Translations under genes and position numbers: made by a program | Origin: Pseudalkalibacillus salsuginis | GTDB taxonomy: Bacteria > Bacillota > Bacilli > Bacillales > Fictibacillaceae | NCBI RefSeq assembly: GCF_021646685.1 | Contig: NZ_JAKJHW010000006.1 | Span: 186,001-250,000 of the forward strand | Reading direction: 5' to 3' | Length of the DNA stretch: 64,000 nucleotides | In this document: one piece after another, positions 5,768-60,452 of the stretch | How positions within the stretch are numbered: the stretch's first letter is position 1 | Layout: each line of letters starts with the position of its first letter | The notes under the pieces: model-generated | Told to the model about the DNA's origin: nothing | The model's input: the letters and a program-made list of their open reading frames with translations, nothing else | The model's database searches: none

Positions 5768-5845
5768 CATTTTTAAGATAATTTTTGAGTTGTTGAGATA
5801 ATTCTCAAGTTGTTGGGATAAAGTCAAAGTTGTCGAGATAAATCT
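5768..5845 (+). repeat. Array of a GAGATAA motif at exact 20-bp steps
   Basis: The heptamers AAGATAA, GAGATAA, GGGATAA and GAGATAA begin at 5775, 5795, 5815 and 5835; the last three are preceded by GTTGTTGAGATAA-like flanks. The step is exactly 20 bp. The array lies between the convergent genes at 4995 and 5909. Confidence 0.7.
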
Positions 5846-21383: not shown

Positions 21384-21648
21384 AAGGATAAGAAAGTATA
21401 AATTCGATGAAGTGATGTCCAGCTCCAACGCCCAACCACTTGGATCACTTCAGACCTCCTGCGGCGGCGACAGCCTCCTCGTCGGGCTTCCAGTGCCCTT
21501 CGCGGTTGATCAGGGCGTCTGCGCTTTTCTTGATGTCCAGCTCCAACGCCCAACCACTTGGATCACTTCAGACCTCCTGCGGCGGCTACAGCCTCCTCGT
21601 CGGACTTCCAGTGACCTTCATGGTTAACCAGGGCGTTTAGCTTTTCTT
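21383..21648 (+). repeat. Structured intergenic repeat, two tandem copies
   Basis: A leader GGATAAGAAAGTATAAA is followed by two copies starting at 21414 and 21532 (118-bp period), each running from GATGTCCAGCTCCAACGCCC to GCTTTTCTT. Each can fold into a long stem built from AACGCCC/GGGCGTT, CCAC/GTGG and TCACT/AGTGA pairs. The unbroken reading frame across the copies is a by-product of the repeat. Copies also occur at 25.8, 35.8, 43.6 and 47.8 kb. Confidence 0.85.
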
Positions 21649-21798
21649 GATGGTGTTGGAAAGCGGTATACGGAAGAAGATAATGAACATGAGCTGGAAA
21701 CTAATTTGTGGAGCAAAATAGTGGTACAATGAAAAAAGATTTATTTCTGATTCCGAAATAAATTCTATGAAGTTCCAAACAGATTAGGATGAACAACC

Positions 21799-30424: not shown

Positions 30425-30516
30425 TTTATTGGTTGAATTCCAGAAAATATTGGTAAACAAGTAGATTTTATTGGTAAAGTGCCAAGAAATATCGGTAAAA
30501 TGCAGCACTCCGATAT
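30425..30516 (+). repeat. Array of TATTGGTAA motif at exact 21-bp steps
   Basis: TATTGGT or TATCGGT begins at 30427, 30448, 30469 and 30490, always followed by T or A-rich sequence. Located between convergent ABC-F and RNase Z genes. The motif is the reverse complement of the TTACCAATA array at 48 kb. Confidence 0.8.
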
Positions 30517-43566: not shown

Positions 43567-43839
43567 TCAGAAAGTATAAAAATTTTGGTTGCGCTTTTCC
43601 TTGATGTCTAGCTCCAGCGCCCAACCACTAGGATCACTTCAGTCCTCCTGCGGCGGCAACAGCCTCCTCGTCGGACTTCCAGTGACCTTCGTGGCTGAAC
43701 AGGGCGCTTGCGCTTTTCCTTGATGTCTAGCTCCAGCGCCCAACCACTAGGATCACTTCAGTCCTCCTGCGGCGGCAACAGCCTCCTCGTCGGACTTCCA
43801 GTGACCTTCGTGGCTGATCAGGACGCTTGCGCTTTTCTT
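43567..43839 (+). repeat. Structured intergenic repeat, two tandem copies
   Basis: Leader GAAAGTATAAAAATTTTGG (about 43569), the tail GCGCTTTTCC of a lost copy (43591-43600), then copies at 43603-43721 and 43722-43839 (119-bp period). The basal stem is AGCGCCC/GGGCGCT (43616-43622 with 43702-43708), versus AACGCCC/GGGCGTT in other copies: a compensatory A-U to G-C change. AGTCC/GGACT pairs closer to the loop. Confidence 0.88.
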
Positions 43840-45079: not shown

Positions 45080-45262
45080 TGATGCAATTCCTAAGTTATC
45101 CGCGTAAACATCTACGGAATCGTGCAATTACTCGAATTCCAGCGCACAAATTTTCAATCCATAAGTCGCTCGTGCATTTATTTCTATTTTGATGCAATTG
45201 ATTTACGGAATCGCGCAATTGTCTCACAAAACGGTGCAATTATCATAAAAAGTCATGCATAA
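45080..45262 (+). repeat. Array of TGCAATT motif at 20-21 bp steps
   Basis: TGCAATT or close variants begin at 45083, 45103 (degenerate), 45123, 45143 (degenerate), 45173, 45193, 45214, 45235 and 45256. Steps are 20, 20, 20, 30, 20, 21, 21, 21. ACGGAATCG precedes two of them. No coding potential. Confidence 0.65.
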
Positions 45263-45674: not shown

Positions 45675-47795
45675 ATGCGTTGTCAAAAATGTCAAGTAAA
45701 CGAAGCCAATGTAAGAATGACTCTTCACATAAATGGGATTACAAAACAACTACGCCTCTGCCCTTCATGTTATAAAGAAATCCAAAATGAAATGAAGCAA
45801 CCAAGCGGTTTGGATGGTTTCTCCCACAATCCAATGGGCTTCAATATGGAGGATTTCATGATGCAGAATGAACAGCAAGCGGGCCAAAGCACTGCAGGAA
45901 AACGCGGTCAAGGCGGCCTACTTGATGATCTGGGACGTAACCTTACCGATGCGGCTAAAGCTGGATTGATCGATCCGGTCATCGGTCGGGATAAGGAAGT
46001 GAATCGAGTCATCGAAATTCTGAACCGTCGAAATAAAAACAACCCTGTACTGATCGGTGAGCCAGGTGTTGGTAAAACAGCGATTGCTGAAGGACTTGCT
46101 TTGAAAATCGCTGATCAAGATGCACCTAAGAAGCTTCTCAATAAACAGGTATACTTGTTGGATGTTTCTTCCCTTGTTGCCAATACAGGTATCCGTGGCC
46201 AATTTGAAGAGCGTATGAAACAATTGATTTCTGAAGTGCAACAACGTAAGAACGTCATCCTTTTCGTCGATGAGATCCATCTATTGGTAGGAGCAGGTTC
46301 AGCTGAAGGTTCCATGGATGCAGGGAACATCTTGAAACCAGCTCTTGCCCGCGGGGAACTTCAACTTGTCGGTGCGACGACATTGAAAGAGTACCGTCAA
46401 ATCGAAAAGGATGCGGCACTCGAACGCCGTTTCCAACCAGTCATGGTAAAAGAACCGACAATCGATGAAGCCGTGGAGATTTTAAAAGGATTAAAAGAAA
46501 AATATGAACAATATCATGATATCCGATACACAGACGAAGCCCTTCAAGCATGTGTCACATTATCCCAACGTTACATCCAGGATCGGTTCCTTCCAGATAA
46601 AGCGATCGACCTTATGGATGAAACCGGTTCTAAAATGAACTTGAAGCATGCAGGAATGACAACTTCAGAAGACATTGAAGAACGGCTTGCAGCTATTGCA
46701 AAGGAGAAAGAGGAAGCAACTCGACAAGAGGATTATGAGCGTGCGGCTAAACTTCGTGATGAAGAGTTGAAACTGCAAGAAAAGACAGCAACAGCTACTG
46801 AAGAAAAACCTTGGGTCGAACTTGAAGATATCCAATGGATCGTTGAAGAGAAAACTGGAATTCCAGTGCGTAAACTTCAAAATGAAGAGCAAAACAAGCT
46901 GAAGAATTTTGCGGAACGCCTCGGCTCAAGGGTCATTGGACAGGAAGAAGCCGTTCAAAAAGTGGCTAAAGCAATCCGCCGTAGCCGTGCAGGACTGAAA
47001 TCAAAGGTACGTCCGATCGGTTCATTCCTTTTCGTCGGGCCTACCGGTGTAGGTAAAACCGAACTGACGAAGACACTTGCAGAAGAGCTGTTTGGCTCCA
47101 GGGATGCTATGCTCCGTTTGGATATGAGTGAGTATATGGAAAAACATTCTGTATCCAAACTGATCGGTTCGCCACCAGGTTATGTCGGACATGATGAAGC
47201 CGGACAGTTGACAGAACGTGTGCGTAGAAATCCTTACAGCATCATTCTATTGGATGAGATCGAGAAAGCGCACCCGGATGTTCAGCACATGTTCCTTCAA
47301 ATCATGGAAGATGGCCGACTGACTGACAGTCAAGGGCGTACAGTCAGCTTCAAAGACACCGTCATCATCATGACAAGTAACGCTGGTACAGGAGTCAAGA
47401 AAATTAAGGTCGGGTTCGAAAATCGAGAAACTGAAGCGATCTCCATCCTTGAAAATCTTGGTGACTACTTCAAGCCAGAATTCTTGAACCGTTTTGATAC
47501 GATCATCCAATTCAACGAGTTGAATGAAGAACATCTTGTTCAAATTGTTGATTTGATGCTGGATGATATCCGTGGAATGGTGAAGGAAGATGGTCGTGTA
47601 ATCGAAGTGACAGAAGAAGCGAAAAAACAAATCGTCCATCTTGGTTACGATCCTCGTTTCGGAGCACGTCCAATCCGCCGTGTCCTTCAAGAAAAAGTGG
47701 AAGACGGCATTGCTGATCTACTACTGGATGAGGAAGATATAACTAAGATCAGAGTTGATTATATCGATGACGAAATCGTTGTCCAAAAAGGATGA
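45675..47795 (+). CDS. clpE: ATP-dependent Clp protease ATP-binding subunit ClpE
   Basis: 706 residues: N-terminal zinc finger (CQKC ... CPSC, residues 3-29), first AAA+ module with GEPGVGKTA and Walker [10 protein letters not shown], a short UVR-containing middle domain ([20 protein letters not shown]), second AAA+ with GPTGVGKTE and [10 protein letters not shown], and a C-terminal D2-small domain. It unfolds damaged proteins for ClpP. The zinc finger and short middle domain separate it from ClpC. AAAAGGAGG precedes the ATG. Confidence 0.96.
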
Positions 47796-47838
47796 CGAAC
47801 AGAAGGGAAGAGCTGACAGGCTCTTCCCATTTTTAGAT

Positions 47839-47994
47839 GGATAAGAAAATATAAAAATTTTGGTTGCGGTGAAGTGATGTCTATCTTCAACGCCCAACCA
47901 CTTTGGATCACTTCAGACCTCCTGCGGCGGCAACAGCCTCCTCGTCGGACTTCCAGTGACCTTCGTGGTTAACCAGGGCGTTTGCGCTTTTCTT
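47839..47994 (+). repeat. Structured intergenic repeat, single copy
   Basis: Leader GATAAGAAAATATAAAAATT and a single copy with basal stem AACGCCC (47889-47895) / GGGCGTT (47976-47982). The 21-bp array begins four bases after its end. Confidence 0.85.
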
Positions 47995-47998
47995 AGAT

Positions 47999-48095
47999 TT
48001 ACCAATACGATTTTGGGTGTTACCAATAATATTAATGCTTTTACCAATATTTTCGAACCGTTTACCAATATATTTGCAGTGAATACCGATATATA
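47999..48095 (+). repeat. Array of TTACCAATA motif at exact 21-bp steps
   Basis: TTACCAATA starts at 47999, 48020, 48041 and 48062, and ATACCGATA at 48083: five units with a constant 21-bp step and unrelated sequence between. Lies between clpE and the permease remnant. Confidence 0.85.
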
Positions 48096-48123
48096 GTGTA
48101 ACTTTACACCACCAGGGAAATTT

Positions 48124-48495
48124 TTATTGACCGCTCCAACGGAAAAAACGTGAAGCAAGAAACAGGGATACAACTGAAATCCCTAGCAGGACTCCGACTT
48201 CGAGTCCGTAGTCAGTGATCGGCCCGGAAGTCCATGTTCCTCTCAACAACTGTATCGTATAATAAAGCGGGAGCGCTTTACCTACATATTGTAAAATATC
48301 TGGCATTATATCTAACGGGAAGGTTGCCCCTGAGAGGAACAGCATTAGATTAAGAAAAAGAGAACTGATCGCTGCAGCACTTTGTGTATTTTTAGCAAAC
48401 GAGCAATGCCAGCAATGTACTGCCGATATACTGTGGCAAGGTAAGATCATACATCAACATGCCGAAAACCATCAATAAGATCGCTGAACCTTTCT
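48124..48495 (-). pseudogene. ABC-2 type permease remnant
   Basis: The frame at 48124-48450 encodes FAKNTQSAAAISSLFLNLML and LPLYYTIQLLRGTWTSGP, the C-terminal membrane part of an ABC-2 permease (YhaP/LinM-like). Upstream, SAILLMVFGMLMYDLTLPQY lies in another frame, so there is a frameshift near 48415. The N-terminal two thirds and any ATPase partner are gone. Repeat arrays flank both sides. Confidence 0.75.
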
Positions 48496-48502
48496 TTAAA
48501 AT

Positions 48503-48604
48503 CACCGATATATTTTTGATTTGCACCGATAAAAATTGAATGAGCACCGATATAAATTAAATGTTCATCGATAAAAATTGAATGAGCACCGATATATTTT
48601 AAAT
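48503..48604 (+). repeat. Array of CACCGATA motif at exact 21-bp steps
   Basis: CACCGATA, CACCGATA, CACCGATA, CATCGATA and CACCGATA begin at 48503, 48524, 48545, 48566 and 48587: five units, 21-bp step, spacers AAAAATTGAATGAG-like. Confidence 0.85.
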
Positions 48605-48677
48605 GAACTCTAAAAAGGAATTCATAGGGCTCTATCGAAATGATGAGGATGCATAGATTTATAAAGGAGAGTCATCA

Positions 48678-49577
48678 ATGAAAAACTGGGCATTTGTATT
48701 GATCGCACTCGGCGCGGCATTATGGGGCCTTATCGCGATTTTTGTGGAAGGTCTGTATGCTTATGGTTTTACAGCGCTCCAAGTCGTCGCGATCCGAGTC
48801 ATTGTAGCAGCACTGATCTTAATTGGCTTTGCACTCTTGAAAGACCCCAAGCTCTTCAAGGTTCATTGGCGGGACAGCATTTATTTCATCGGAACCGGCA
48901 TATTCAGCATTGTCTTCTTTAACTGGTGCCTGTTCACTGCGATCCGGGAAACTTCAATTGCGGTAGCAGCCATTTTACTTTATACAGCTCCTGCGATCGT
49001 GACGATCATTTCAAGATTTTTGTTTAAAGAATGGTTCACGAAGAGAAAACTTGCCGCACTATTCATGACATTGTTCGGGTGTGCGTTTGTGATCGGTCTG
49101 ATTCCCGGAGGTTCGAGCTCTGTTTCGTTATACGGCGTCATTGTGGGACTTGGCTCAGGCTTGGGTTACGCACTTTATAGTATTTTTGGGAAGTATGCCC
49201 TGTCGAAATATTCATCCTTGACCGTCATTACGTACACGTTCATTTTTGCCTCAGTGGCCATGATTCCGACCACAGGTTTATGGAGGATGACAAGCGAGCT
49301 GAAAGAACCAGGTGTTATTTTGAATGCAGTCGGGATCGGTTTTGTATCCACTGTTCTCGCCTACATGCTGTATACAGCCGGCCTGCAATTCGTGGAATCG
49401 AGCCGGGCTTCGATTACAGCTACGGTCGAGCCTGTGGTCGCGACCTTGGTAAGCGTTGTGCTGTTCCAGGAACAACTGACAGTTTGGCAATTGGCCGGGA
49501 TCTTCCTGGTGCTCAGTGCTGTCATGATCGTGCAAGAATCGAAAAAAGCGAGGCTGAAACAATCATTAGCAAAATAG
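48678..49577 (+). CDS. EamA/DMT family transporter
   Basis: 299 residues, ten membrane helices in two EamA repeats (about 5-138 and 152-288; the second ends GIFLVLSAVMIVQES). Likely exporter of small metabolites; substrate unknown. AAAGGAGAG precedes the ATG. The SDR gene starts 12 bases after its stop, so the two are probably co-transcribed. Confidence 0.88.
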   Translation: MKNWAFVLIALGAALWGLIAIFVEGLYAYGFTALQVVAIRVIVAALILIGFALLKDPKLFKVHWRDSIYFIGTGIFSIVFFNWCLFTAIRETSIAVAAILLYTAPAIVTIISRFLFKEWFTKRKLAALFMTLFGCAFVIGLIPGGSSSVSLYGVIVGLGSGLGYALYSIFGKYALSKYSSLTVITYTFIFASVAMIPTTGLWRMTSELKEPGVILNAVGIGFVSTVLAYMLYTAGLQFVESSRASITATVEPVVATLVSVVLFQEQLTVWQLAGIFLVLSAVMIVQESKKARLKQSLAK

Positions 49578-60066: not shown

Positions 60067-60099
60067 TTAAGGACACTTCAATTATGAAGTGTTCTTTTC
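60067..60099 (+). terminator. Terminator of the sigma-54 operon
   Basis: GGACACTTCA-ATTA-TGAAGTGTTC followed by TTTTCG. Confidence 0.85.
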
Positions 60100-60325
60100 G
60101 TTATGAGACCCTGTAACCACGAAAACAAGATTTTGAGGCACGCATAGGAGCGTTATGAGACCTTGAAAACACGGAAAGGCGATTTTAAGGGACTCATAAA
60201 AGCGTCATGGGACCCTATAATCACGAAAGAACGATTTTGAGGGACTCATAGGAGCGTCATGTGACCCTGAAACCACGAAAGAACAATTTTGAGGGACTCA
60301 TAAGAGCGTCATGAGACCCTGAATA
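60099..60325 (+). repeat. 52-bp repeat array, five units
   Basis: The element CGTYATGRGACC begins at 60099, 60151, 60203, 60255 and 60307, an exact 52-bp step. A unit reads ACTCATAAGAGCGTCATGAG, then CCCTGAAACCACGAAAGAAC and ATTTTGAGGG. Within each, CTCAT/ATGAG can pair. Same family as the 34.5-kb array. Confidence 0.85.
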
Positions 60326-60452
60326 CAAGGAAGAATACGAGAAAAGGAAGAATACGAGAAAAGGAAGAGCCGAATTATTCAAAGTTCATAGCAAAACTGG
60401 ATCCAGCTCGGGAGAAATATCTTTTATTTTACCTAAAGGGTTTCCATGCTGG

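What the first reader, a model, noticed from the sequence alone, without database searches (positions are those of the whole stretch)
47999..48095. Five TTACCRATA motifs spaced by exactly 21 bp
TTACCAATA or ATACCGATA begin at 47999, 48020, 48041, 48062 and 48083 with unrelated bases between. The motif is conserved, the spacers are not, yet the step is constant. 21 bp is two turns of B-DNA, so all motifs face the same side of the helix, as expected for cooperative binding of a protein. The array is non-coding and lies behind clpE. I know of no described element of this kind.
Basis: partly seen in the sequence, partly recalled or inferred. Interest (0 to 1): 0.75.

Follow-up and report, generated by a model that had tools for sequence, protein, structure and literature searches.

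The report
Nuclease genes paired with helix-phased arrays
These five repeats belong to a large family of short DNA arrays, spaced two turns of the helix apart, many of which lie beside genes for a predicted DNA-cutting protein; each such protein likely recognises its own array, which would be a new kind of self-spreading protein-DNA pair in Bacillus relatives.

Summary
The five motifs sit at the stated positions, step exactly 21. The genome holds 21 such arrays in two sister flavours (TTACCAATA, GCACCGATA); 44 of 50 close motif pairs are 21 apart. Between sister species the core changes less (2.1%) than the spacer (12%), and arrays gain or lose whole 21-bp units. GACCGATA arrays with step 20/21 occur in other families.

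The arrays lead to a protein family: about 330-residue NERD proteins (predicted PD-(D/E)XK nuclease, zinc ribbon, winged helix). Of 77 such genes, 64 are flanked by arrays of four or more units at step 20/21; unrelated steps give none or one; other NERD subfamilies 0 of 19; of 26 loci chosen without any motif, 20. Paralogs have different motifs. A motif read from one gene's flank predicted arrays elsewhere in the window's genome; another occurs in its own genome and in none of 19 others. In 14 of 20 ACCGATA-array genomes exactly one examined paralog carries ACCGATA arrays.

Shown: pairing, phasing, dispersal. Inferred: binding, nicking, spread. Nearest analogue: REP/RAYT, but neither palindromes nor a tyrosine transposase were found.

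The parts
47999..48091 (+). the finding: array of 5 units, TTACCAATA x4 + ATACCGATA, step 21
   Evidence: same array in the same gap of G005 (L213/L451), with unit and spacer changes
30427..30498 (-). second array of the same flavour, 4 units (one degenerate), step 21, between a + strand ORF and a convergent - strand ORF
48502..48594 (+). array of the sister flavour GCACCGATA, 5 units, step 21 (one unit CATCGATA)
   Evidence: the same flavour flanks the frame-broken NERD gene at G000:C15 (L194)
45194..45243 (+). short array of a third flavour, GCAATT, 3 units, step 21; same word as upstream of the NERD gene at G000:C17 (L324/L415)
5787..5834 (+). short array of a fourth flavour, AGTTGTTGAGATAA-like, 3 units, step 20; same words as upstream of a NERD gene of the relative G005 (L343)
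47805..47828 (+). terminator-like stem behind clpE; the array lies beyond it
   Evidence: consensus match
45675..47795 (+). clpE-like gene; left neighbour of the array

Best explanation
The five motifs are one array of a dispersed intergenic family whose close relatives directly flank genes of about 330-residue NERD proteins, and each such protein, predicted to be a PD-(D/E)XK nuclease with a zinc ribbon and a winged helix, likely binds its own motif unit by unit along one face of the DNA and would nick there so that units are duplicated and copied into other intergenic gaps. Shown: the step of 20/21, the conserved core with freer spacers, whole-unit gain and loss, the gene-array adjacency, different motifs beside different paralogs, and dispersal of a gene's motif through its own genome (two motifs tested). 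Predicted: fold, active site, DNA-binding domain. Inferred and untested: binding, cooperativity, nicking, and the copying of arrays as a REP/RAYT-like gene-repeat pair. For the finding's own flavour (TTACCAATA) the link to a gene rests on a single case: in the relative G005 such an array stands directly upstream of a NERD gene that has lost its nuclease part.
Against: No binding, cutting or copying was measured. No defined element ends or target-site duplications of arrays were noticed (not searched for systematically). At least 13 array loci are shared by G000 and G005, so spread is slow. The nuclease would face tens of its own sites in the host chromosome. In the window's genome the GCACCGATA gene is itself frame-broken, yet the core is still conserved. 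ACCGATA-labelled NERDs are not one clade (11 changes on the tree, shuffled mean 14.8; 2 of the 16 labels, L361 and L386, were not borne out). Three of them share only 33% of the recognition helix, and one different-motif pair (L327/L378) is no more different there than elsewhere in the winged helix, so the winged helix as sole reader of the motif is not proven. 6 of 20 array genomes showed no ACCGATA NERD among the genes examined, and 6 of 77 array-type genes have no chain of even 3 units. PDB matches of the model are weak (one at E below 0.001).
Confidence: 0.6

Rival explanations
1. Host-useful chromosome sites: the NERD protein coats its arrays cooperatively and works as an architectural or insulating protein between transcription units; the nuclease fold acts in repair or is kept for structure. 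Arrays persist because they help the host.
For: Core conservation against faster spacers; arrays intergenic, the two in the window of this flavour past stem-loop, T-run sequences; strict helical phase; protein family in 316 of 397 genomes of the order at E 1e-10.
Against: Several different motifs per genome and many broken genes; patchy presence of any one motif (18 of 397 genomes for ACCRATA); the gap behind clpE is empty of arrays, or holds another flavour, in sister species.
Confidence: 0.25
2. Array-type NERD is an anti-invader nuclease: the chromosomal arrays act as docking or sequestering sites that hold the enzyme harmless or ready, and foreign DNA is the real target.
For: Nuclease-like fold nearest to Can2, Cdn1 and McrC, which are defence nucleases (their role is recalled); many diverging paralogs; weak match of 2 of 4 proteins to a defence protein model, far below its cut-off.
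Against: I noticed no recurring defence genes around arrays, but no PADLOC scan was run.
Confidence: 0.1
3. The arrays are ordinary operators of transcription factors, with NERD proteins as self-regulating regulators; dispersed arrays form a regulon.
For: Upstream arrays begin some 130-530 bp before many NERD start codons; winged helix in the model.
Against: Arrays lie as often after the stop codon as before the start (39 down, 41 up of 77), between genes of varied kinds, and few sit in divergent gaps (read by eye).
Confidence: 0.1
4. Chance or neutral minisatellites with no protein partner.
For: Units are gained and lost as in minisatellites.
Against: Same core in many families with different spacers, steps of 20/21, tied to one gene family.
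Confidence: 0.02

Closest known systems
REP / REPIN repeats with RAYT (TnpA-REP) transposase genes
   Same: A gene flanked by its own repeats, the same repeats dispersed in intergenic gaps, several independent gene-repeat pairs, repeat identity tied to the gene (PMC2817692, passages read).
   Different: Protein is a NERD nuclease-like/zinc ribbon/winged-helix protein, not a tyrosine (Y1) transposase; repeats are direct, in phased arrays, not palindromes; RAYT genes have two inverted REPs, here flanks are often in one orientation or on one side only.
Cooperative direct-repeat binders (BldC; LytTR regulators with sites two turns apart, the latter recalled)
   Same: Direct repeats read by a protein multimer (BldC: PMC5859096, title and start of abstract in the listing).
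   Different: Those are known as regulators' promoter sites; here tens of arrays and many protein-motif pairs, with a nuclease-like domain.
TAACTGA intergenic direct repeats of Beggiatoaceae, Cyanobacteria and Bacteroidetes
   Same: A heptamer in sets of direct repeats across intergenic regions and distant taxa (PMC4679880, abstract read).
   Different: One heptamer, mostly just before start codons, with only candidate binders named; here step 20/21, many motifs, genes beside them.
NERD-domain proteins
   Same: PF08378 N-terminal domain.
   Different: I found no paper that gives them repeats or DNA targets; a 2022 paper (PMC9040797, passages read) says that to its authors' knowledge NERD had not been studied before in any bacterial protein.
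Homing endonuclease genes (recalled)
   Same: A nuclease gene sitting within its recognition sequence (arrays of 4 or more units on both sides in 16 of 77).
   Different: Many sites without the gene remain in the same chromosome; no insertion of the gene into an empty array was seen (not searched for).

Membership tests
REP/RAYT (REPtron) | gene flanked by its own repeats, repeats also dispersed in intergenic gaps | tested here: met
   flanks; dispersal, two motifs
REP/RAYT (REPtron) | tyrosine (Y1/HUH) transposase | tested here: not met
   the 5 proteins scanned match NERD (PF08378) and nothing else in Pfam at 1e-3; PD-(D/E)XK-like fold
REP/RAYT (REPtron) | palindromic repeat unit | tested here: not met
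   units are direct repeats of an asymmetric 8-9 bp core
NERD-domain proteins | PF08378 over its cut-off | tested here: met
   3 intact proteins of 5 scanned clearly over the cut-off; the 2 broken copies at 21.1 (below) and 24.3 bits (above); hits over the cut-off in 20 of 20 genomes
PD-(D/E)XK nucleases | D...ExK active-site residues in a restriction-endonuclease-like fold | tested here: met
   D, E and K 99-100% in 75 full-length array-type proteins; fold matches, middling scores; activity itself not testable here
CRISPR arrays | long near-identical repeats, unique spacers of similar length, cas genes | tested here: not met
   only 8-9 bp conserved with 11-13 bp between; cas genes were not searched for
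LytTR response-regulator sites | LytTR-domain protein bound to direct repeats two turns apart in promoters | tested here: inconclusive
   the array-flanking family is NERD, not LytTR; genomes were not searched for LytTR proteins
Known structured RNA | match to an Rfam family | tested here: not met
   0 matches at gathering scores in 47700-48700
Homing endonuclease genes | site-specific cutting of the gene-free allele and copying into it | not testable with these tools
   needs biochemistry and crosses

The most novel reading that the evidence does not exclude
Bacillales carry a previously unseen class of gene-repeat systems: fast-diversifying NERD nuclease/winged-helix proteins, several orthogonal ones per genome, each of which recognises, seeds and spreads its own helically phased DNA arrays between genes, leaving the arrays behind when the gene decays: a non-transposase counterpart of REP/RAYT and a natural library of protein-DNA address codes.
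Probability: 0.5. Interest if true: 0.93.

Novelty: categorically new. Interest (0 to 1): 0.86.

Why it matters
It ties a domain family of unknown bacterial function (NERD) to a DNA target, explains a class of unexplained intergenic repeats in many Bacillales genomes, and offers dozens of protein-motif pairs in which recognition, cooperativity along one helix face and possible selfish spread can be tested directly.

Tried and rejected
Coding repeats: 21 is seven codons, but steps of 20 and 21 mix within arrays, and arrays lie between genes; the hit of G013 (as in Fictibacillus locus L089) looks coding (Ala-rich units) and was set aside, as were G140 (step 22, identical units) and G179 (coding-like). 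Single sites: TACCRATA is not in excess genome-wide (370 against 395 for the reversed pattern in G000), so uptake-type single sites were dropped. Orientation: in G000/G005 co-directional neighbours mostly run against the motif, but other families show no such bias (read by eye). A shared neighbour other than NERD: two other clusters also span four groups; I took them for common families (ABC ATPases, response regulators) without a scan, and they are mostly not next to the array. One clade for ACCGATA proteins: not found (11 changes, shuffled mean 14.8, 1 of 500 shuffles as low). Recognition helix as reader of the motif: 40% identity against 61% for the rest of the helix-turn-helix in one set of four different-motif paralogs; lower than the rest in five of the six other different-motif sets, higher in L327/L378 (77% against 71%); 85-92% in five same-motif pairs; but 33% in three ACCGATA-labelled proteins (one of them, L386, not borne out): mixed. 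Viral contigs: 13 stretches, not followed. Paper search by motif letters gave 1,524 papers, the 40 listed are noise. No paper linking NERD or Bacillales to such arrays in the listings.

Limits of the counts: the cut at 290 bits between array-type and other NERD genes was set after seeing the scores; in the motif-free sample two proteins of 280-289 bits also have arrays, so the cut is rough. 106 different NERD loci were examined out of 143 hit rows (some rows are pieces of one gene). The 20 genomes were picked for ACCGATA arrays, in some of which the NERD flank array is itself among the arrays found. The profile used for the motif-free sample (A1) came from relatives of a NERD protein found beside an array. 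One search scored at most 5 candidates per genome. Core conservation is partly favoured by picking arrays on the G000 motif; even half the spacer rate (6%) exceeds 2.1%. In one search three clpE loci were read on the wrong side; repeat them in the right orientation.

Full report
Observation. The window holds 13 WTACCRATA against 1.5 expected; none of 100 shuffles reached 13. It also holds a second array of the flavour (30427-30498, - strand) and a sister flavour GCACCGATA (48502-48594). A scan of the window for chains of 4 or more 8-mers finds 3 chains at step 20/21 and, over seven other step pairs, 1 in all.

Genome and relatives. The window is part of G000 (4.29 Mb). ACCRATA pairs with any step from 9 to 39: 50 places, 44 at step 21 by my count of the rows; 43 of them form 21 arrays (four of these, at contig ends, share one unit), one is a lone pair. 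The reversed pattern gives 7 places. G005, a same-genus genome that by its contig lengths is Alkalihalobacillus sp. YIM B00296, has 39 of 50 at 21. Single TACCRATA sites are not in excess. Three-unit arrays: 4 of 34 genomes of the family (one of them coding-like), 18 of 397 of the order (two set aside), 3 of 398 of the class, one of which is the window's own and one set aside. Outside the window's family the flavour is mostly GACCGATA, with steps of 20 and 21, sometimes mixed in one array; distances up to 70 bp fall almost only on multiples of 20-21 in 17 genomes, with a few at 18, 19, 38, 39, 58, 59 and 69.

Evolution. Thirteen locus pairs (14 arrays) were aligned between G000 and G005. Core ACCRATA: 7 changes in 336; spacer: 68 in 568; flanks, partly coding: 161 in 3109. 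Six of the arrays differ by exactly one or two 21-bp units. Behind clpE, G005 has the same array; G003 has in the same gap an array of another motif (5 units of TTGGNNAGAATTA, step 21); G004, G006 and G007 have no such chain there; in G001 and G002, also without one, other sequence follows clpE. So arrays come and go, and the same gap can hold another flavour.

The protein. Around arrays of 11 taxonomic groups, one gene family lay directly next to arrays in four of them (cluster c4): NERD proteins. All 20 array genomes searched carry 3 to 13 NERD hits (in the control set of 14 well-known genomes 3 have any). I examined 115 loci with such hits (and five earlier ones), 114 with a NERD frame, 106 after dropping 8 duplicates. 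In the 600 bp on either side, chains of 4 or more units at step 20/21 occur in 74 of 114 loci; unrelated step pairs between 12 and 39 give 0 or 1, while 19/20, 21/22, 39/40 and 40/41, which share or double the true step, give 15, 57, 7 and 18. Without duplicates: 64 of 77 array-type genes (71 with 3 or more units), 4 of 10 fragments, 0 of 19 NERD genes of other subfamilies; 41 upstream, 39 downstream, 16 both. Paralogs of one genome have different motifs; examples from several genomes are GTTGATAAA, CCACCGAAC, TTTACCGGCC, CGCTTAAAT, GAGTCGCG, GGCACATAA, GTGAACA, TTCTAGGA.

Tests of the pairing. (i) A sample of NERD loci taken by protein score alone: 20 of 26 non-duplicate loci (4 duplicates dropped of 30) have such arrays, 0 at unrelated steps. 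(ii) GTGAACA, read off the flank of the NERD gene at G000:C15:452909, was sought in the genome: 27 triple matches at 7 sites in G000, 6 of them elsewhere than the gene; 10 at 4 sites in G005, 3 elsewhere; control 0. (iii) CGCTTAAAT, from a NERD gene of G104: 27 triple matches at 14 sites in G104, none in the other 19 genomes. (iv) AC(C/T)RATA arrays flank exactly one of the examined NERD genes in each of 14 of 20 genomes, none in 6, never two; all 16 such arrays have the sense of the gene. The 14 are not all independent: those of the window's genus, and G031 with G086, group as orthologs. (v) For TTACCAATA itself: G005 has three TTACCAATA units about 100 bp upstream of a NERD gene of which only the first and the last parts are left, in more than one frame (L204). 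(vi) The window's two short further arrays have the words found beside two more NERD genes (read by eye). The family as a profile is in 316 of 397 genomes of the order at E 1e-10, so ACCGATA arrays are one flavour among many.

How it likely works. Inference: the winged helix (with ribbon and wing) reads the 8-9 bp core; neighbours two turns apart meet on one face, which explains the strict step and why single sites are not kept; the nuclease-like domain nicks within the array, and repair adds, removes or copies units. New arrays would arise in intergenic gaps, where they do least harm. The gene, flanked by its own array, is inherited for a while, diversifies and decays; arrays outlive it (in G000 and G005 the GCACCGATA gene is frame-broken). 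This is the logic of REP/RAYT with other parts. A host role as an architectural site is the main rival and is not excluded; core conservation while the cognate gene is broken speaks for it or for recent decay.

Known kinds. REP/RAYT shares the anatomy but fails on transposase and palindrome. NERD membership is met. Paper searches (open-access library) gave nothing on NERD with repeats; PMC9040797 (passages) says NERD had not to its authors' knowledge been studied in any bacterial protein before. That RAYTs carry a Y1 domain, that Can2 and McrC are defence nucleases, and LytTR and homing endonuclease properties are recalled.

Noticed in passing
window about 47840-47996; also 21413-21652 and 43589-43837: A repeat of about 118 bp (CAACGCCCAACCACT...CTTCCAGTGACC) occurs in several copies (for the two tandem ones); behind clpE it sits between terminator and array in G000 but not in G005, with TTAGAT on both sides, as if inserted there (read by eye).
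   Followed up: partly
L454 (G003), behind clpE: A sister species has in the same gap an array of a different motif, TTGGNNAGAATTA, step 21; its NERD gene was not sought.
   Followed up: partly
G104 (L261, L405): GACCGATA arrays reach very high numbers (388 and 367 triple matches), with units of 20 and 21 bp often alternating.
   Followed up: partly
L194, L207, L324, L342-L347 (G000, G005): Many array-type NERD genes of the window's genus are frame-broken or short while arrays remain beside several of them.
   Followed up: partly
window 60099-60332: A tandem repeat of a 52-bp unit (4.5 copies, 80% matches).
   Followed up: no
L327, L367, L372, L429 (downstream flanks): Some NERD genes are followed by very long arrays, chains of 20 to 29 units within 600 bp.
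   Followed up: no
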